Translations under genes and position numbers: made by a program | The notes under the pieces: model-generated | The model's database searches: none | What the model saw: the letters and a program-made list of their open reading frames with translations, nothing else | Told to the model about the DNA's origin: nothing | Source: a virus | DNA: 42,860 nt | Reading direction: 5' to 3' (one strand) | Virus record (IMG/VR): IMGVR_UViG_3300020442_001343 | Location: 1 to 42,860 of that record | Part shown: positions 3,754 through 32,638 of the stretch, piece by piece | Numbering within the stretch: the first letter of the stretch is position 1 | Layout: each line of letters starts with the position of its first letter

Positions 3754-3830
3754 TGGTCGGAGTAGTAGGATTCGAACCTACGACCCTCTGCTCCCAAAGC
3801 AGATGCGCTACCAGGCTGCGCTATACTCCG
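3754..3830 (-). tRNA. tRNA-Pro (anticodon UGG)
   Basis: 77 bases on the minus strand with a complete cloverleaf: acceptor CGGAGTA/TACTCCG, D-arm with GCGCA.CCTGGTA.GCGC, anticodon stem TCTGC/GCAGA around loop TTTGGGA (anticodon TGG), T-arm GTAGG-TTCGAAT-CCTAC, discriminator A and an encoded CCA. It reads all CCN codons by wobble. It lies between two protein genes without its own visible promoter, so it is probably processed from the operon transcript. Confidence 0.97.
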
Positions 3831-25321: not shown

Positions 25322-25993
25322 CTACTGCCCTCCAAAGTACGATGAGCCTTCCATAGCAATCCAGTATGTCAAAGATCCATCTGTTAATGTAAACTGTGCT
25401 AGCCTCTGCGTAGAGATAGTCACATCGTATGCACCAGCAATCAATTTCAGATTCTCTACCTTGAATACAATCTTAAACTGCTCGCTGGTCTTACCTACTT
25501 CGTAAGAAAACTGATGTGCTGTAGTATTCTTAGTATTGGTAGCAAGTACTTTGATTGTATCCCCATCACCTTGGATGATAAGCTCAGGCAGCCCCATTAC
25601 GGACGCTGCTTGTAGTAAGTGCTTTAATACTTTGTCACCAAGTACGAACTTAATTGGTTCGTCAGGCAATGTTACTGCTTTGTCAGGTGGTATTGTAACC
25701 ATCGACTTATCAGCGTAGAAGTATTGGCTACTTGCTTTGTTATCATCACTAATAGAAACATAATATGTATCGAAGTCAAAGTCAGGTTCGTCAAACAGAC
25801 TGACTACACCTAAGAACTCACTCAAGTCGTATATAGCAAACTCTCGTGGAAACTCTTCTTGTACAGCGGCTTGAGCAAGCACCGTCTTGTTCTGCGAAAC
25901 AGTACGAATTATGTTACCCTTTGATACACAAAGGGTTGGGTTGATAGTAGAGAAGTTCTTCAGTACTTGAAAAGTACGTTGGGTTAGTTTCAT
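25322..25993 (-). CDS. 45: Sliding clamp (T4 gp45-like)
   Basis: 223 residues, as in T4 (228). KLTQRTFQVLKNFSTINP at the start, YDLSEFLGVVSLFDEPD, LPDEPIKFVLGDKVLKHLL and the C-terminal strands match gp45. The trimer tethers polymerase gp43 to DNA and also activates late transcription together with gp55 and gp33. Gene 55 is in this window; gene 33 is not seen. Confidence 0.95.
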   Translation of the reverse strand: MKLTQRTFQVLKNFSTINPTLCVSKGNIIRTVSQNKTVLAQAAVQEEFPREFAIYDLSEFLGVVSLFDEPDFDFDTYYVSISDDNKASSQYFYADKSMVTIPPDKAVTLPDEPIKFVLGDKVLKHLLQAASVMGLPELIIQGDGDTIKVLATNTKNTTAHQFSYEVGKTSEQFKIVFKVENLKLIAGAYDVTISTQRLAQFTLTDGSLTYWIAMEGSSYFGGQ

Positions 25994-26838
25994 CGCTTAA
26001 CCTTCTTCACCTTGTTTGCATCTACCGTCGGAGATGCACCTACGCTTGCAAGGGCCGCAAGAGAACCTCCGAAGAAGTAGGAGCCCATGTGAGTAGTTCT
26101 CATCCAAGGACACAGCCACACCTTGATGCCAGCCTTACGAGCCCACTGACAGAACATATAATCTTCAGAGAGGTAACGCTTGCTCTCGGGATCAATCACA
26201 CAATCAAAGTACGCCATGATTTCTCGAGACCCATCAAAGTCCTTGGTACGTACGTGATCAGGTAAGTATGACTGGCCAGGATACGCTTCAGTAAACTTCT
26301 CGAACGCTCGCTTTTGGATCATCATAAATCCAGTACCACCCTCTAGTACTTCTACGGGCTCGTTAATCTTAAATGACCCAGAACCTGATGCTGGGTTAAA
26401 CACGAAGTCTCCAACGAAGTTATCAAGCTCGTTTGGATTCTCGTCTGCAACACCTCGATCGACTGCGTCCTTGATCTTCTCCCAAGCAATAGTCTTCTTA
26501 GGATAAGGGGCACACATGATATCGTAATCACTTTCTTCACTCATCAAAGCAAGCATAGCCAGTACGTCGTTATGATCAAATCCAATATCACTATCGAGAA
26601 AGATCATGTGTGTGCAATCGGAACGCATAAACGTATCTACACAGTAGTTGCGAGCACGTGTGATTAACGATTCGTTAAACAGGTAAAAGAACTTGAGCTC
26701 AATACCATATTGTGTAGCCGCCATTGCAAGATCTGATGTGGACTTTGTATAAGTCCCTGCACACATACCACCATACATGGGTGTGCAAATCATCAGCTTG
26801 CGTTTTTGCATCTCTTCAATGCTTACTTCAACTTCCAT
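25990..26838 (-). CDS. GT-A type glycosyltransferase
   Basis: 282 residues. LMICTPMYGGMCAGTYTKS starts the Rossmann-like donor-binding part; LITRARNYCVDTFMR and MIFLDSDIGF (DxD metal site, LDSD near 82-85) are typical of GT2-like GT-A enzymes, as is YLSEDYMFCQWARKAG later. Similar genes are common in marine T4-like phages next to nucleotide enzymes. The acceptor may be DNA, LPS or a virion protein; nothing here decides. TAATG overlap with the dCTP-deaminase-like gene; 4-base overlap with gene 45. Confidence 0.78.
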   Translation of the reverse strand: MEVEVSIEEMQKRKLMICTPMYGGMCAGTYTKSTSDLAMAATQYGIELKFFYLFNESLITRARNYCVDTFMRSDCTHMIFLDSDIGFDHNDVLAMLALMSEESDYDIMCAPYPKKTIAWEKIKDAVDRGVADENPNELDNFVGDFVFNPASGSGSFKINEPVEVLEGGTGFMMIQKRAFEKFTEAYPGQSYLPDHVRTKDFDGSREIMAYFDCVIDPESKRYLSEDYMFCQWARKAGIKVWLCPWMRTTHMGSYFFGGSLAALASVGASPTVDANKVKKVKR

Positions 26839-27335
26839 TAACTTTCTCCATACTTTTGATCATGCTGCTTGCCAACACCGTAATCACCATCATATTGGTT
26901 AAGTGCTTCAGCTTTGAATAATAGGAATTGTCCTACACGAGTACCGCGTTTGATTCTCAAAGGACCATTGTTGATATGTAAGACACCAGCCATCACACCC
27001 TCATAACCAGAGTCATACAGTCCGGATGTAATGAAACATCCGTTACGATTAAGACTTGATCTGGTGATTACCCATCCGGCTTCGTCGTCTGCAATAGATA
27101 CGATACCTTCCATAATAATCTCATAGCTACCTTCATCGAGTCTCCACCATCCATCAGTAGGATGTATCTCACGAGACTCTCGATGTGTCTTTTCGTCCTC
27201 ACTAATTACAAATACTTGACCATACGTCTGGAATATCTTATCCACACGTAGGTCAATAGCATTGGGTTGTACTTGATCGTCGTCGAACTTACTTAGGGAC
27301 GACTTCGAGTCTGGTGACGCAAGATGAATCATCAT
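26838..27335 (-). CDS. dCTP deaminase / dUTPase family protein
   Basis: 165 residues from ATG 27335 with AGGA eight bases upstream; a TTG-like longer frame is not supported. Family motifs: VQPNAIDLRVDKIF, ITRSSLNRNG (RSSL helix), GLYDSGYEGVMAGVLHI and GTRVGQFLLF. Deaminates dCTP to dUTP or hydrolyses dUTP. With the phage dCMP deaminase at 35941-36408, it would steer pyrimidines toward dTTP. Which of the two activities applies cannot be read from the sequence. Confidence 0.83.
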   Translation of the reverse strand: MMIHLASPDSKSSLSKFDDDQVQPNAIDLRVDKIFQTYGQVFVISEDEKTHRESREIHPTDGWWRLDEGSYEIIMEGIVSIADDEAGWVITRSSLNRNGCFITSGLYDSGYEGVMAGVLHINNGPLRIKRGTRVGQFLLFKAEALNQYDGDYGVGKQHDQKYGES

Positions 27336-27624
27336 CTTTAGTTTCCTGTGTAAAATACCATAACAAAACAATATAGTGGATTGCTTTCAGCAAGTCCTTC
27401 TTATTGTGCCCTTCCTTCTTACCATATCGCATCAAGTACTTGATAGCAGTATCCCGACACGTAGTGTCAACAGATCCTAAGGTCTGCCACACATCGATTG
27501 TTTGGATATTGTTCTGCTCTCTACCTGCTAGCTCACCAACATAGTGACCAGCGTAAGTAGACTCAAGATATGTTAATGCTTCGGATAGAATCTTATCTTC
27601 ATCAAATCTAAATTTATCACTCAT
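27289..27624 (-). CDS. DUF3310 family protein (nucleotide kinase-like annotation)
   Basis: 111 residues from ATG 27624, within an overlap with the transglycosylase gene. The segment TIDVWQTLGSVDTTCRDTAIKY then LMRYGKKEGHNKKDLLKAIHY matches DUF3310, a family found in many phages and labelled as nucleotide kinase without firm proof. It overlaps the dCTP-deaminase-like gene by about 47 bases. Confidence 0.75.
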   Translation of the reverse strand: MSDKFRFDEDKILSEALTYLESTYAGHYVGELAGREQNNIQTIDVWQTLGSVDTTCRDTAIKYLMRYGKKEGHNKKDLLKAIHYIVLLWYFTQETKDDDSSCVTRLEVVPK

Positions 27625-28450
27625 TAGCACAAAGCCTATCAATGTATGACATATTATCAAGTGCTGTATTCACCAGGCTAGTATCATCTGTATGGAAGTT
27701 AAAGTCAACTTCTTTTTCAAACTTTCCATCAATTAAACCAGTAGGTGATCCATCAAACCTTATACCGTTAAGACCAGCCCACACACCAGCGCTGCTGTCC
27801 CAGGTATCAATTGGATACTGTTTTACTAAATCAATCTCATTAGGACCATCAACCATACCAAGCATGTGAATCTTCTTCTTGTTGTTGTAGACATTTCCAA
27901 AGAATCCCATGCGATTCAACTTGTTCAATACTTTCCATCGACTAACAAACCGTTGCAGTTTATTGTCCTTCTCTACTCCATAAGCGTTGGGTACACCTAG
28001 GATAGAAATACCAATGTAGTCAACGTGGCTGATTCTTGATGCCCACAAACAGGTCTCGAGATAATCTCGAATGTTACCAATCTCAGACTGTGGTACAAAG
28101 AAAGTACCAAACCCAGCTTCTCGTAACTGAGGTGCCATGAAGCAAGCTGCACTAATTGTACGCTGACCTGACTCACCAGGATAGTCAGACATTACAATGT
28201 AGTCCGCATCAATCTTTTCACCCATCTCAATAAGTTTGTTAGATGGGTACATCTGACGACCTTGCTTGTACATCTCGAATGCACTGTTATCCAGAATGTA
28301 AGTCAATCCACGATTGTTCTTCTTGAGATCAACGTAGAACTTAACATAGTCTGGATCATCTTCGACAAGATGAGCAAGTAGTAAATGGGTCTTACGATCT
28401 TTGACTAGATCGAGATGTGGCGTTGGTGCAATATGACAAAATTCAATCAT
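27617..28450 (-). CDS. dpdA: DpdA-like tRNA-guanine transglycosylase paralogue (7-deazaguanine insertion into DNA)
   Basis: 277 residues from ATG 28450; a GTG 33 bases earlier has no better support. The fold of queuine transglycosylases is visible by order of motifs: TYILDNSAFEM at about 50-60 (general-acid region), DYIVMSDYPGESGQRT at about 83-98, DYIGISILGV at about 144-153, and KIHMLGMVDGPNEIDLVKQ then YPIDTWDSSAG, in which Asp218 corresponds to the TGT nucleophile. There is no C-terminal zinc site of tRNA enzymes. It lies in an operon with FolE, QueD and QueE, so it most likely exchanges guanine in phage DNA for a 7-deazaguanine, as known for phage DpdA. Activity and product are inference. 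Confidence 0.8.
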   Translation of the reverse strand: MIEFCHIAPTPHLDLVKDRKTHLLLAHLVEDDPDYVKFYVDLKKNNRGLTYILDNSAFEMYKQGRQMYPSNKLIEMGEKIDADYIVMSDYPGESGQRTISAACFMAPQLREAGFGTFFVPQSEIGNIRDYLETCLWASRISHVDYIGISILGVPNAYGVEKDNKLQRFVSRWKVLNKLNRMGFFGNVYNNKKKIHMLGMVDGPNEIDLVKQYPIDTWDSSAGVWAGLNGIRFDGSPTGLIDGKFEKEVDFNFHTDDTSLVNTALDNMSYIDRLCANE

Positions 28451-28787
28451 AATAACAAGTCGCTCCGTTCTCTCCGTCTTCACTCACAGTAATGATGAGC
28501 TTCCGACAAGGATACGTTTTCAAAATGTATTCTGAAAGATCATCACATAGCATCTCACACGACTTATAGTTTAACTCAAGTAAGCCATCATAAAGAGATT
28601 CTAGTTCTCTTTTGAACAAGATAAACTCTATGTCACGATCATCATGGAACACCTCTATCTCCACTCTAAAGTGGAACATATGACGATGAGGGTATTGAAG
28701 AAACTCAACGCCCTCAGGTGCTAGAGGATAGCAATGGATACCTTCCTTCTGGAAGGTAACCCATATAGTCTTGTTAGGTCTGATCAT
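28443..28787 (-). CDS. T-fold (QueD-like) paralogue
   Basis: 114 residues, not clearly named. YPHRHMFHFRVEIEVFHDDRD resembles the HGHNYRVEV start of QueD; IEFILFKRELESLY fits its DF..LK helix; YKSCEMLCDDLSEYI aligns with the Cys-Glu segment of the phage QueD at 30501-30995 (GCEGLADQLYSYV); and LIITVSEDGENGA stands where QueD has its ET end. So a T-fold protein of the GTP-derived pathway is likely; which step it carries out is unknown. Gene neighbours are the DpdA-like and FolE genes. Confidence 0.65.
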   Translation of the reverse strand: MIRPNKTIWVTFQKEGIHCYPLAPEGVEFLQYPHRHMFHFRVEIEVFHDDRDIEFILFKRELESLYDGLLELNYKSCEMLCDDLSEYILKTYPCRKLIITVSEDGENGATCYYD

Positions 28788-28789
28788 AA

Positions 28790-29011
28790 CTATCGCTTAG
28801 CTTTGTACTTACGGCCGCTTTTCAAAGCACCTTCAGCCAAACGATCAATCAGTTCAACAGAGTAGATGTTCTCACAGATATTACGCTTATACTCTTCTGC
28901 TTTGGCAGAGAAGTCCCAAAAAGTGTCTACCCAAAAACAATAGGCTTTACGAGCCTTTTCTAGGGTCATGTTTTTAAAATCTGGTTTATGAAATGCTGCT
29001 TGGTCGTTCAT
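28790..29011 (-). CDS. Hypothetical protein, 73 residues
   Basis: Start placed at ATG 29011 (GAGGAA about nine bases upstream); ATG 29029 in a TAATG overlap is the alternative. Helical and basic at the end (KSGRKYKAKR), with aromatic residues (YCFWVDTFWDFSAKAEEYK). No family recognised. Part of the deazaguanine operon by position only. Confidence 0.6.
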   Translation of the reverse strand: MNDQAAFHKPDFKNMTLEKARKAYCFWVDTFWDFSAKAEEYKRNICENIYSVELIDRLAEGALKSGRKYKAKR

Positions 29012-29028
29012 TATAAAAGTTCCTCTCA

Positions 29029-29289
29029 TTAAAGGTCCGGAAAAGTTCCGAACGGTGACATGGATATTACATCAGGTAAGGTAGAAGGTCCACCTTTTTC
29101 TATCCAACTACTGGACATAATATAAATTAAGTACTTGTCGATGTAAACCATACGCCATCCTAGACCTTGTTTTGAAACATGGTCATAAACACCGTCTGGT
29201 ACATCGACAAGCAATCTTGTATTAACATGACGATTTTTAAATATCTTGGCTATTGTTTCCTCGCCAAGAATCTCACGTATATTATCCAC
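29029..29289 (-). CDS. Hypothetical protein, 86 residues
   Basis: Not recognised. Starts with an N-terminal helix (DNIREILGEETIAKIFKNR) and continues with beta-rich sequence (LGWRMVYIDKYLIYIMSS). Overlaps folE by about 8 bases and the next gene by TAATG; its place in the 7-deazaguanine operon is the only clue to role. Confidence 0.6.
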   Translation of the reverse strand: MDNIREILGEETIAKIFKNRHVNTRLLVDVPDGVYDHVSKQGLGWRMVYIDKYLIYIMSSSWIEKGGPSTLPDVISMSPFGTFPDL

Positions 29290-29953
29290 GATTAATGTTG
29301 TTCATTACCTCTTTACGAAGTTCACTACTCTTAGCGCCAAACTTACCAAGACAACAAGCAGTCACAGTAGTACTATTCGTGTCCTTGATACCACGTTGTG
29401 ATACACAAGTATGTCCAGCATCGACAACTACCATCACATCTTCACTTTCTGTGATGTGAGCGATTGCGTGAGCAATCTGTTGAGTCAGTCGTTCCTGTAC
29501 TTGTGGACGCTGAGCAAAGTATTGCGTAATACGATTTAGTTTAGATAGACCAAGAACTTTCTCACCTGGAATATAAGCAATGTGTGCTTTGCCAATGATT
29601 GGACGAAGGTGGTGCTCACAATCAGAATACATTGTTATATTCTTTTCTAAGACAAACTCTTCACCATGACAAAACTTGTTTTCAACTGTAGTGCACTTTG
29701 GAAAGGTATCGTAACGAAGACCTGAAAAGATTTCGTCAACATACATCTTAGCAACACGCATAGGTGTTTCTTCCAATGAGTCATCAGTTAAATCAAGACC
29801 AAGGACCTCTAACATTTCTTTTGTGAGTTCAGCTACTTTGAGTAACTTTACTTCGCGGTCTTCCTTCACAAGAGGTGTTATGGGTGTATTGATACCTAGA
29901 GTATCAAGATACTTGTTTACCTTGCGGCCTAGTTCTGGATTGCTTTTCGACAT
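29282..29953 (-). CDS. folE: GTP cyclohydrolase I (FolE)
   Basis: 223 residues; GAGG eight bases before ATG 29953. Makes dihydroneopterin triphosphate from GTP, the first step of both folate and 7-deazaguanine synthesis. Zinc-site and family motifs: ENKFCHGEEF, YSDCEHHLRPIIGKAHIAYIP (CEHH), GLSKLNRI, QERLTQQIA and HTCVSQRGIKD (distal Cys). The N-terminal 40 residues are longer than the core. In context with QueD, QueE and DpdA-like genes it feeds the deazaguanine pathway. A structured leader of about 120 bases precedes it. Confidence 0.95.
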   Translation of the reverse strand: MSKSNPELGRKVNKYLDTLGINTPITPLVKEDREVKLLKVAELTKEMLEVLGLDLTDDSLEETPMRVAKMYVDEIFSGLRYDTFPKCTTVENKFCHGEEFVLEKNITMYSDCEHHLRPIIGKAHIAYIPGEKVLGLSKLNRITQYFAQRPQVQERLTQQIAHAIAHITESEDVMVVVDAGHTCVSQRGIKDTNSTTVTACCLGKFGAKSSELRKEVMNNINRG

Positions 29954-29982
29954 TTAGATATCCTCTTTGAGTTGAGCTTAAC

Positions 29983-30048
29983 GACCGTAAGAGGCGAGGA
30001 CGGTCAGGCCTGGGCCGAGGAAAAGCTCATTGCAAGCGCAACCCTCGG
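29983..30048 (-). ncRNA. Structured, G+C-rich leader of folE (candidate cis-regulatory RNA)
   Basis: Between the PRTase stop (30076) and the folE start (29953) is a 122-base gap, the longest in this operon. In minus-strand order it has CCGAGG...CCTCGG (30048-30043 with 30020-30015) holding an inner TTGC-GCTT-GCAA stem, then GACCGT...ACGGTC (30005-30000 with 29988-29983) with an 11-base loop, then the ribosome-binding site. Neither hairpin has a T-run, so they are not terminators. I found no match to preQ1 or other riboswitch consensus I know. Confidence 0.5.
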
Positions 30049-30066
30049 AAAACCTTGTTGCTTGGT

Positions 30067-30074
30067 TATTTATG
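30067..30074 (-). promoter_or_regulatory. Possible late promoter variant (CATAAATA) before folE leader
   Basis: CATAAATA on the minus strand, one mismatch from TATAAATA, 18 bases before the first leader hairpin. Position at the start of an otherwise empty leader is suggestive; the 5' base differs from both variants seen elsewhere in the window. Confidence 0.35.
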
Positions 30075-30075
30075 A

Positions 30076-30504
30076 TCATCGTTCCCATGGGAACGAAATC
30101 CAATTGCTATTATCACTGGTCATTCCAATATAATCAACATTAGTGAACGAACTCCATGTCTTATTAACTAACACAGCAGTCCATAGACTACCGTTCCATG
30201 TGTTATAGTCTATAACTTGTCTAAGTGTTTTACCGGAATCGTTGATATCGTCCACAATTAACGTATTCAAATCAGTAGTAATCTTTTCTTGAACTTCACC
30301 GTCGCGGGTCTGCCACATTAACGGTATCAGAGGAACATCCAGTAGATTTGAAAGATGAGCTCCTGGTACAAACCCGCCGCGGCCGAGCGCGACTATTTGT
30401 TGCACTTGTAAATTTTCTCTGACTTGCTTAGCTATCTTATGAACCATCATATGATATTCGGTCCACCACACTTCTTCAATGTCTGGCCCAACTTTTAAAC
30501 TCAT
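30076..30504 (-). CDS. Phosphoribosyltransferase (type I PRTase)
   Basis: 142 residues. The PRPP loop is clear: NTLIVDDINDSGKTL near 80-94 with the two acidic residues and the following turn. IVALGRGGFVPGAHLSNLL and VPLIPLMWQTRDG match xanthine/hypoxanthine PRTases. It would join PRPP with a purine-like base. Set between QueD and FolE genes, it may act on a 7-deazapurine or salvage guanine; that is inference. Overlaps queD by ATGA. Confidence 0.85.
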   Translation of the reverse strand: MSLKVGPDIEEVWWTEYHMMVHKIAKQVRENLQVQQIVALGRGGFVPGAHLSNLLDVPLIPLMWQTRDGEVQEKITTDLNTLIVDDINDSGKTLRQVIDYNTWNGSLWTAVLVNKTWSSFTNVDYIGMTSDNSNWISFPWER

Positions 30505-30995
30505 ATAAGGTCTTCACCCCACTCACGATGACCTTCACGGAAAGCCATATTAGATTGTGTCTCGCGTACCTCTACTCGGAAGCACCACAGTCGCTCTGCT
30601 TCTGCAGGACCCCAGTAGTCTGGAATGTAGACACCATTTACATAACTGTAAAGTTGATCTGCTAGACCTTCACACCCAAGTTTAGGAAGCACAGTAAGCC
30701 TAGCGAGCTTCTTCTCTTCTAACAACTTGAATGTTTCAAACTCAGGATCATCTTCTGCTACAAGCAGAGTGTGATCAAATTGATCTTTCAACAAAGCCTT
30801 GAGTTCCTTTAGGCCACCGTAGTCAGCTACCCAGTTACGAACATCAAGGTCGTTTGTTCCAAAGTAAAACTTCATTGAGAAAGAGTAACCATGGATCAAG
30901 TTACAGTGGCTATCGGCTCGCCACTGCCTGTATGCACATGGAAACTCATCGTGGTACTCCTTAGTGGAGACATACTTGTATGTGATTGGTTCCAT
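30501..30995 (-). CDS. queD: 6-carboxytetrahydropterin synthase (QueD-like, T-fold)
   Basis: 164 residues; AGGA before ATG 30995. Residues SHCNLIHGYSFSMKFYFG carry the catalytic Cys and the HG motif of QueD, followed by WVADYGGLKELKALLKDQFDHTLL (DF...DH region), LGCEGLADQLYSYV and a C-terminal VEVRETQSNMA (VxET end). Converts dihydroneopterin triphosphate to 6-carboxytetrahydropterin. One of the two usual zinc His positions (H in HGH) is Tyr here. Operon with QueE upstream, PRTase and FolE downstream. Confidence 0.87.
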   Translation of the reverse strand: MEPITYKYVSTKEYHDEFPCAYRQWRADSHCNLIHGYSFSMKFYFGTNDLDVRNWVADYGGLKELKALLKDQFDHTLLVAEDDPEFETFKLLEEKKLARLTVLPKLGCEGLADQLYSYVNGVYIPDYWGPAEAERLWCFRVEVRETQSNMAFREGHREWGEDLI

Positions 30996-30996
30996 A

Positions 30997-31902
30997 TTAT
31001 GTTCCTATAACATTACCAAATACATGGCAATGTGCTCTTGTTGAATAATTATAACCCCGCTGCAAAGCTTCAACCGCAATCTTGGCCTCGTGCGTTACCC
31101 CATCTTCTACTTCCAATACCAGCTCTTCTTTACGAGCACCAGAGCTCATAATCCAAACTGGGAACGTAGCTCCGGCTTCGCGATAACTTAAAGTATTGAT
31201 CTTTACCTCTTGCCAAGATTCTTCGCATCCGTTCACTACATACTTCAACTGACCCTTGTTAGAGTGGGCACAGTAATCTCTTACTACATCTGGTTTGATA
31301 GCCTTCTTAGGTTTTTCGCCAGCTGTTGACCATAGCTTTGGAGAGATAGACCAAAACCATTCACCTCCGTGATAATCATAGTCCTGTACAAACTTTTTCA
31401 TATCAGATGTGAGAGGTGTTGTACCGTTAGTTTCTACAGTAACAAAGTTAGGACGATTTTCTCTCCTATCAAACTCTTCCATGATATCAATAATAGCTTT
31501 CTGGCTAGGCTTAAGCATTGGCTCACCACCAGTAAAGGCCATGTGTACTTCTTGACCGGTCTCTGGGTTCTTAAACTTGCCATGAGGTAACAATGCTTCT
31601 AGTTCATCACAAATGTCTGATGCGCTCTTGTTATGCATTAGGTGTCGATACTTTTTAGCCCACGTATATGAGCTATCGCATCCTTTATCAAACACAGGCA
31701 AATCTTCTACGCGTGTAATGTCAGCTAGGTCTAACTTTTCATACGGGAGCTCCCAGCTGTCTGGGTCTGTAGGATTGTCTTGACCAAACCCATTACATTG
31801 CAGATTACAAAGAAAGAATCTAATCCACAATGTCGAGTGACCCGTATAGTTTCCTTCTCCTTGCGGTGAGAAGAATGTCTCACTATACTTGTATGTTTGC
31901 AT
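30997..31902 (-). CDS. queE: 7-carboxy-7-deazaguanine synthase (QueE-like radical SAM) with split cysteine motif
   Basis: 301 residues from ATG 31902 (GAGGA upstream; TGATG overlap). FSPQGEGNYTGHSTLWIRF is the typical QueE start. The cluster motif is unusual: Cys33 and Cys37 (LCNLQCNGF) are as expected, but position 40 is Phe and the third Cys appears at 76 in KGCDSSYTW, the usual C-D-T-x-Y-[ST]-W end. So about 35 residues are inserted between cysteines 2 and 3. MAFTGGEPMLKPSQ is the SAM-binding GGEP motif. Makes 7-carboxy-7-deazaguanine (CDG) from carboxytetrahydropterin. I recall similar inserts in other phage homologues, so the enzyme is probably active. Confidence 0.87.
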   Translation of the reverse strand: MQTYKYSETFFSPQGEGNYTGHSTLWIRFFLCNLQCNGFGQDNPTDPDSWELPYEKLDLADITRVEDLPVFDKGCDSSYTWAKKYRHLMHNKSASDICDELEALLPHGKFKNPETGQEVHMAFTGGEPMLKPSQKAIIDIMEEFDRRENRPNFVTVETNGTTPLTSDMKKFVQDYDYHGGEWFWSISPKLWSTAGEKPKKAIKPDVVRDYCAHSNKGQLKYVVNGCEESWQEVKINTLSYREAGATFPVWIMSSGARKEELVLEVEDGVTHEAKIAVEALQRGYNYSTRAHCHVFGNVIGT

Positions 31903-32066
31903 CACAGTTCCTCGTAGATACCAAGTAGCTCAGCAATTAAGAATAAGAAAGCGAATATAGTAATACTTTGAAACGCAATACCAAGAAAGCACCCTAGCAA
32001 TCGCACAGTGCTCTTTATGATACTAATAACAAAATGAGAATCTCTAGGATCCTTACCTTGAGCCAT
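31902..32066 (-). CDS. Single-span membrane protein, 54 residues
   Basis: ORF that fills the gap between the methyltransferase and QueE, with TAATG and TGATG overlaps. Polar start (AQGKDPRDSH), then two hydrophobic stretches: residues 22-33 and 36-50, which may be one bent or two short helices. No family recognised. The overlap pattern supports it. Confidence 0.6.
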   Translation of the reverse strand: MAQGKDPRDSHFVISIIKSTVRLLGCFLGIAFQSITIFAFLFLIAELLGIYEEL

Positions 32067-32638
32067 TAATCTCTCCTTATGAACACAAGTCCATTTTCAC
32101 GCATAAACTTCTTAGTCATCGTGCTAGCTTCCCTTAATTCGTTAGTCAGATCAACATCAAAGTCAAAGCCATAGTGATCAAACTTATCGACCCAGTATTC
32201 ATAGTATTGTTCGTTGACGTGATGACGACCACCATCACCGGGTTCTGCGTGTGTACAGATTACGTACTTACACCTGCTAACATCAACCATCCAGTTATCC
32301 ATATATTTTTCATCTACGTGTTCAAGGAACTCTACCGTCCAGCACAGATCAAATTCTCTATCTCCTAGAGGTGCAGGACCATCTACGTAGTCGTGTAGCA
32401 TAAACGGTACGGCCGGCCGTTCAAAATTATATTCACCATGTAGTGTACCTGGATCACCATCAATACCTAAAGCGGCCAAGTTATGAATCTCAATCGCGTC
32501 TTTAACTACACACGCACGGCCACATCCAATATCCAACATGGACTTAATTCCCCAGTTACGGATCGCAAATCTCAAAGCTCCTCTATCATTATGGCATCGA
32601 CGTTCACCACCACCTAAATGTTCTGGTAGTTTATCCAT
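32066..32638 (-). CDS. SAM-dependent methyltransferase (class I)
   Basis: 190 residues. SMLDIGCGRACVV near 34-46 is the SAM-binding motif I, ALGIDGDPG the motif II acidic strand, and FDLCWTVEFLEHVDEKY the motif IV region of class I methyltransferases. Substrate unknown: DNA, a sugar or the deazaguanine product are all possible. The His/Tyr-rich tail HHVNEQYYEYW is shared with several phage sugar O-methyltransferase-like proteins. Overlaps the deformylase by 8 bases. Confidence 0.82.
   Translation of the reverse strand: MDKLPEHLGGGERRCHNDRGALRFAIRNWGIKSMLDIGCGRACVVKDAIEIHNLAALGIDGDPGTLHGEYNFERPAVPFMLHDYVDGPAPLGDREFDLCWTVEFLEHVDEKYMDNWMVDVSRCKYVICTHAEPGDGGRHHVNEQYYEYWVDKFDHYGFDFDVDLTNELREASTMTKKFMRENGLVFIRRD

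What the first reader, a model, noticed from the sequence alone, without database searches (positions are those of the whole stretch)
27617..31902. 7-deazaguanine DNA-modification operon lacking QueC: CDG may be the final base
Seen: DpdA-like transglycosylase, FolE, QueD-like, PRTase and QueE-like genes in one operon, together with a second T-fold protein. Known: FolE-QueD-QueE yield 7-carboxy-7-deazaguanine (CDG); QueC makes preQ0 from it; phage DpdA puts 7-deazaguanines into DNA, and CDG-type bases have been reported. No QueC is seen in these 42 kb. Inference: this phage may insert CDG itself, or use host QueC, to evade restriction.
Basis: partly seen in the sequence, partly recalled or inferred. 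Interest (0 to 1): 0.8.

Follow-up and report, generated by a model that had tools for sequence, protein, structure and literature searches.

The report
Phage operon for 7-deazaguanine DNA
This virus fragment carries a gene set that probably swaps guanines in its DNA for plain 7-deazaguanine, with a small zinc-site enzyme (DpdL type) standing where the usual enzyme QueC would be, which probably helps its DNA escape bacterial restriction enzymes.

Summary
QueE, QueD, a PRTase, FolE, a 114-aa T-fold protein and a short DpdA lie in one minus-strand operon, and no QueC was found in the 42,860-bp record, an IMG/VR fragment. The inference of CDG as final base is probably one step short. The 114-aa protein is a degenerate QueD (model pLDDT 92.6, nearest solved fold E. 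coli QueD). It keeps the three zinc histidines but has lost the catalytic Cys and Asp-His. It takes QueC's place: 0 of 154 viral loci around it carry QueC, 0 of 28 QueC loci carry it, and 25 of 25 relatives of this DpdA with enough upstream sequence have it. In two Amycolatopsis genomes the set DpdA-(this protein)-QueD-QueE-FolE sits in hosts without QueC. From memory of an unheld paper (Cui 2023), phages can carry dCDG and dDG, and a CDG decarboxylase 'DpdL' was predicted. Best reading: this DpdL-like protein decarboxylates CDG and DpdA inserts 7-deazaguanine (dDG). This is a new member of a known kind. The PRTase is also pathway-linked (12 of 12 phage records). A sister DpdL lineage has another DpdA and a glycosyltransferase, hinting at sugar-decorated 7-deazaguanine.

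The parts
30997..31905 (-). queE-like radical SAM, 7-carboxy-7-deazaguanine synthase (ATG at 31902)
   Evidence: phrog_2076 1e-47; CX3C-then-distant-C arrangement shared with Vibrio phages nt-1 and KVP40
30501..30995 (-). queD-like 6-carboxytetrahydropterin synthase; catalytic Cys31, Asp74-His75 and Glu109 kept, zinc motif HGH reads HGY
   Evidence: PF01242 2e-15, phrog_2389; alignment A2
30076..30504 (-). purine-type phosphoribosyltransferase, PRPP loop VDDINDSGKT present; pathway-linked
   Evidence: PF00156 2e-8; relatives in only 12 of 50,697 phage records, all 7-deazaguanine phages
29282..29953 (-). folE GTP cyclohydrolase I
   Evidence: PF01227 5e-60; NCBIfam FolE equivalog above cut-off
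29029..29289 (-). small ORF, 86 aa, found only in some relatives
   Evidence: no family; present in 15 of 80 related loci
28790..29029 (-). small ORF, 79 aa, poorly conserved
   Evidence: no family; 3 of 80 loci
28443..28787 (-). DpdL-like T-fold protein, 114 aa: zinc His triad H18/H34/H36 kept, QueD catalytic Cys and Asp-His lost; proposed CDG decarboxylase
   Evidence: phrog_17812 1e-30; AF2 pLDDT 92.6, Foldseek best E. coli QueD; alignments A1, A4 and with QueD
27617..28450 (-). short DpdA-type DNA guanine transglycosylase, 277 aa (ATG at 28450)
   Evidence: AF2 pLDDT 96, Foldseek best TGT E 8e-9; 27% identity to annotated DpdA of Flavobacterium phage immuto
27289..27660 (-). DUF3310 protein, fused to DpdA in Rhizobium phage RHph_I1_18
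   Evidence: PF11753 2e-6
26838..27371 (-). dCTP deaminase/dUTPase-like gene next in the operon
   Evidence: PF22769 7e-16

Best explanation
The operon makes and inserts plain 7-deazaguanine (dDG) into phage DNA. Steps: FolE turns GTP into dihydroneopterin triphosphate, QueD makes CPH4, QueE makes CDG, the 114-aa DpdL-like protein removes the 7-carboxyl of CDG, and DpdA exchanges guanine in DNA for 7-deazaguanine. The PRTase probably returns the released guanine to the nucleotide pool. Shown here: gene identities, folds, loss and retention of QueD active-site residues, and replacement of QueC by the DpdL-like protein. Inferred: the decarboxylation itself, its place before insertion (the fold is that of a small-molecule pterin enzyme), the role of the zinc site, the guanine salvage, and protection from restriction.
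For: Model of the 114-aa protein: pLDDT 92.6, nearest solved structures E. coli QueD; profile match to phage QueD 90.5%. In 53 relatives the three zinc histidines are invariant; the catalytic Cys aligns with an invariant Leu and the Asp-His motif is missing. Mutual exclusion with QueC: 0 of 154 DpdL-like viral loci have QueC and 0 of 28 QueC loci have the protein; 11 of 12 isolates with it have no PF06508 match over the cut-off in the whole record and the twelfth has only a 33-bit partial one; 13 phages with a PF06508 match (12 strong, Moby weak) lack it. All 25 relatives of this DpdA with at least 3 kb upstream have it. Amycolatopsis loci hold DpdA-DpdL-QueD-QueE-FolE in order, in hosts with only partial QueC matches of about 25 bits. 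Cellulophaga phage phiST carries QueD-QueE-FolE-MazG-DpdL-like without QueC. PRTase linked 12 of 12.
Against: No activity or base was measured. The name DpdL, its predicted decarboxylase role and the existence of dDG and dCDG in phages come from memory of Cui et al. 2023 (NAR 51:9214; not held), so membership against their reference sequence could not be tested. The nearest studied analogue of this chemistry, tubercidin biosynthesis, is proposed to use a UbiD-type decarboxylase instead (PMC6112128). Replacement of QueC suggests a different end product, not which one. The full window phage genome is not held.
Confidence: 0.66

Rival explanations
1. CDG itself is the final base; the T-fold protein acts elsewhere, for example as a CDG carrier or DpdA helper.
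For: FolE-QueD-QueE-DpdA alone would suffice for dCDG. Mycobacterium phage Bipper lacks QueC and lacks this protein by profile, and Hutinet 2019 raised CDG for it.
Against: The window and 25 of 25 testable relatives of its DpdA carry an extra QueD-like protein with an intact zinc site in QueC's place; a pure CDG pathway would not need it.
Confidence: 0.13
2. Host QueC, or a phage QueC outside the fragment, turns CDG into preQ0 and DpdA inserts preQ0.
For: The record is a fragment; many hosts have QueC, including Magnetospirillum, Bradyrhizobium and Methanoperedens genomes that hold DpdL-like loci.
Against: No clear QueC in 12 whole isolate records or 32 viral records with the protein; the same gene set occurs in Amycolatopsis genomes that lack QueC.
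Confidence: 0.08
3. The T-fold protein is a partner of the phage QueD: it supplies the zinc site that the HGY-type QueD lacks, so both together make CPH4.
For: Complementary residues: QueD-like keeps Cys/Asp-His but has HGY; the T-fold protein keeps the His triad but not Cys/Asp-His.
Against: HGY-type QueD is general in phages, including QueC phages without this protein (Iggy, RHEph04, R5C), and a canonical HGH QueD stands beside the protein in the Amycolatopsis prophage.
Confidence: 0.07
4. 7-Deazaguanine or CDG is only an intermediate and a further group is added, for example a sugar.
For: In 23 related loci of a sister lineage a GT4-type glycosyltransferase lies near or next to the DpdL-like gene, without the short DpdA.
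Against: That glycosyltransferase is absent from the window and from all 65 loci with window-type DpdA; the GT21-like gene at 25990-26838 also has relatives in phages such as Cr30, phiM12 and DLP_6 that gave no match to the DpdA or DpdL-like query.
Confidence: 0.06

Closest known systems
Phage 7-deazaguanine DNA modification (FolE-QueD-QueE-QueC-DpdA; CAjan, 9g, nt-1; Hutinet 2019, PMC6884629)
   Same: FolE, QueD, QueE and a DpdA-type transglycosylase in a phage
   Different: QueC, found in CAjan and nt-1, is replaced by a DpdL-like T-fold protein
dDG/dCDG phages with DpdL (Cui 2023, NAR 51:9214; from memory, text not held)
   Same: CDG pathway without QueC plus a small protein predicted to decarboxylate CDG
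   Different: Reference DpdL sequence could not be compared; window adds a PRTase and a short DpdA
Cellulophaga phage phiST cluster (NC_020842)
   Same: QueD-QueE-FolE, DpdL-like gene, PRTase elsewhere in the genome, no QueC
   Different: Only 36% identity in the DpdL-like protein; MazG gene in between; PRTase about 18 kb away
Rhizobium phage RHph_I1_18 (MN988519)
   Same: Similar T4-like gene order: gp47-gp46-PDF-QueD...FolE-DpdL-like...DpdA-DUF3310-dUTPase
   Different: DpdA and DUF3310 fused; no PRTase found in the stretch
Tubercidin cluster tubA-I (PMC6112128)
   Same: CDG made by the same three steps, a PRTase acts on CDG, and the 7-carboxyl is removed
   Different: Decarboxylation is proposed for a UbiD enzyme on the nucleotide, not a T-fold protein on the base; no DNA insertion

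Membership tests
Phage 7-deazaguanine DNA-modification pathway | FolE, QueD and QueE encoded together | tested here: met
Phage 7-deazaguanine DNA-modification pathway | DpdA with TGT fold | tested here: met
   Foldseek TGT E 8e-9; invariant Asp54 and Asp218 in A3, assumed to match the TGT catalytic Asp pair
Phage 7-deazaguanine DNA-modification pathway | Modified base in virion DNA | not testable with these tools
   metagenomic contig; needs LC-MS
preQ0 branch (QueC) | QueC (PF06508) in the genome | tested here: inconclusive
   absent from the 42.9-kb record, which is a fragment; absent in relatives
DpdL, CDG decarboxylase (Cui 2023) | Sequence homology to the published DpdL | not tested
   paper and reference sequence not held
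DpdL, CDG decarboxylase (Cui 2023) | Genomic context: CDG pathway plus DpdA, no QueC | tested here: met
DpdL, CDG decarboxylase (Cui 2023) | Decarboxylation of CDG | not testable with these tools
   needs enzyme assay
QueD/PTPS as the enzyme CPH4 synthase (114-aa protein) | T-fold with three zinc histidines | tested here: met
   histidines assigned by sequence alignment
QueD/PTPS as the enzyme CPH4 synthase (114-aa protein) | Catalytic Cys and Asp-His | tested here: not met
   Cys aligns with invariant Leu30, Asp-His segment missing

The most novel reading that the evidence does not exclude
DpdL-like proteins mark a large QueC-independent branch of phage DNA modification with two mutually exclusive arms: short DpdA giving bare 7-deazaguanine (this window), and another DpdA plus a GT4 glycosyltransferase giving a sugar-bearing 7-deazaguanine; a dedicated PRTase recycles the guanine that DpdA releases.
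Probability: 0.3. Interest if true: 0.75.

Novelty: new member of a known kind. Interest (0 to 1): 0.5.

Why it matters
It replaces 'QueC is missing' with a candidate enzyme and a testable end product. DpdL-like genes are common in viral contigs (at least 593 stretches), so bare 7-deazaguanine may be a frequent phage DNA base. A base without any group at C7 would remove the N7 contact used by many restriction enzymes (general knowledge). The PRTase link and the glycosyltransferase lineage suggest pathway parts that I have not seen described.

Tried and rejected
Split zinc site between QueD-like and T-fold protein: rejected, since HGY QueD is also found in QueC phages and HGH QueD occurs beside the T-fold protein. 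GT21-like gene at 25990-26838 as part of the pathway: not supported. Methyltransferase 32066-32638 as a base-modifying step: found in only 10 of 46 comparable loci. PDB sequence search with the T-fold and DpdA profiles gave only chance matches; fold search was needed. Text searches for DpdL found no relevant paper. D479 'QueC' match is a 33-bit partial hit to a divergent paralogue with about 20% identity to phage QueC. The Fisher tests ignore shared ancestry and are not used as probabilities.

Full report
Observation. The minus-strand genes at 27617-31905 are as described: QueE-like, QueD-like, PRTase, FolE, two small ORFs, a 114-aa protein and a short DpdA, closely spaced or overlapping. FolE, QueD, QueE and PRTase are supported by Pfam, PHROGs or NCBIfam. 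The DpdA matches no named family, but its model (pLDDT 96) finds tRNA-guanine transglycosylases first (E 8e-9), and it has 27% identity to an annotated phage DpdA. The record is an IMG/VR virus sequence of 42,860 bases with T4-like replication genes, a major head protein and SbcCD-like nuclease genes. QueC is absent from it. A relative with similar gene order is 171 kb, so the fragment alone cannot show absence.

The key protein. The 'second T-fold protein' is phrog_17812, unknown function. Its model (pLDDT 92.6) has E. coli QueD as nearest solved structure (TM about 0.7-0.8), and profile comparison with phage QueD agrees. Across 53 relatives H18, H34, H36, S76, C77, E78 and E103 are invariant. 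Aligned with E. coli QueD, the histidines fall on the zinc ligands, the catalytic Cys becomes an invariant Leu, and the Asp-His segment is missing. It is a QueD-derived protein with a kept metal site and lost QueD chemistry.

It stands in for QueC. Twelve phage isolates with the protein were searched whole: eleven have no QueC match over the family's cut-off (Xanthomonas X1 has one 16-bit partial match below it) and Vibrio phage D479 has a 33-bit partial one to a divergent paralogue. Thirteen phages with a PF06508 match, twelve of them strong, have no such protein. Among viral contigs, 0 of 154 loci around the protein have QueC and 0 of 28 loci around QueC have the protein; some of these loci overlap or are close kin, so the counts are not independent. 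All 25 relatives of the window DpdA with at least 3 kb upstream carry it. It occurs with several different DpdA types: the short one, two long ones and the phrog_887 type in Amycolatopsis and Bradyrhizobium prophage-like loci. In the Amycolatopsis locus L204 the order is DpdA, this protein, QueD, QueE, FolE, followed by terminase-, portal- and capsid-like ORFs (read from the translations), and the hosts show no real QueC. So the set persists where QueC cannot make preQ0.

Mechanism. Established chemistry gives CDG from FolE, QueD and QueE. From memory, Cui et al. 2023 (title confirmed in reference lists; text not held) reported dCDG and dDG in phages and predicted a CDG decarboxylase, DpdL. 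The 114-aa protein fits that role by fold, context and co-occurrence. I infer that it decarboxylates free CDG, because its fold is that of a small-molecule pterin enzyme, and that DpdA then inserts 7-deazaguanine. Decarboxylation of a CDG-derived compound is proposed in tubercidin biosynthesis, but there for a UbiD enzyme after a CDG-specific PRTase.

PRTase. Relatives of the window PRTase occur in only 12 of 50,697 phage records, and all belong to phages with 7-deazaguanine genes: the Cellulophaga phiST group, Flavobacterium immuto, Brevundimonas MaInes and StAshley, Synechococcus BUCT-ZZ01 (clusters; StAshley by its QueD match). It is found both with and without QueC. Since each DpdA exchange frees one guanine, salvage of guanine is the simplest role; a CDG-type PRTase as in tubercidin is an alternative.

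Sister lineage. Of 92 loci with the protein, 65 have the short DpdA and no GT4 glycosyltransferase, 23 have the glycosyltransferase and no short DpdA, and 4 have neither. The second group mostly has long DpdA-like proteins and includes PA5oct, ACP17, X1, Phosso and BUCT-ZZ01. This suggests a glycosylated 7-deazaguanine there. It is outside the window and untested.

Verdict. Observation confirmed; interpretation partly supported; final base more likely 7-deazaguanine than CDG; new member of a known kind.

Noticed in passing
L147-L150, L152 and viral loci such as L051, L062: GT4-type glycosyltransferase near or next to the DpdL-like gene, mostly together with long DpdA-like proteins, never with the short DpdA; sugar-nucleotide genes (epimerase, cytidylyltransferase-like) nearby in some loci.
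   Followed up: partly
window 30076-30504: PRTase whose phage relatives all lie in 7-deazaguanine phages (12 of 12 records).
   Followed up: partly
window 30997-31905: QueE has about 40 residues between the second and third cluster cysteines, as in Vibrio phages nt-1 and KVP40.
   Followed up: partly
L162:2047-2472 (Mycobacterium phage Bipper gp4): Unassigned 141-aa protein between DpdA and QueD in a phage without QueC and without a detectable DpdL-like protein; could be another final-step enzyme.
   Followed up: no
L205/L206 (Streptomyces sp. NEAU-Y11): DpdL-like gene beside QueD, FolE and a protein with deaminase-like HAE/PCxxC motif (by eye), not obviously phage; possible 7-deazapurine metabolite cluster.
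   Followed up: no
L181 (Vibrio phage D479): Divergent QueC-like protein with SGIDSL in place of SGGxDS and a CxxC-type motif.
   Followed up: partly
window 25990-26838: GT21-like glycosyltransferase (phrog_1574) beside the sliding clamp gene; relatives in Cr30, phiM12 and DLP_6 type phages.
   Followed up: yes
window 32066-32638: Small SAM methyltransferase-like gene upstream of queE, in 10 of 46 comparable loci.
   Followed up: partly
window 3754-3830: tRNA-Pro (TGG) gene.
   Followed up: no
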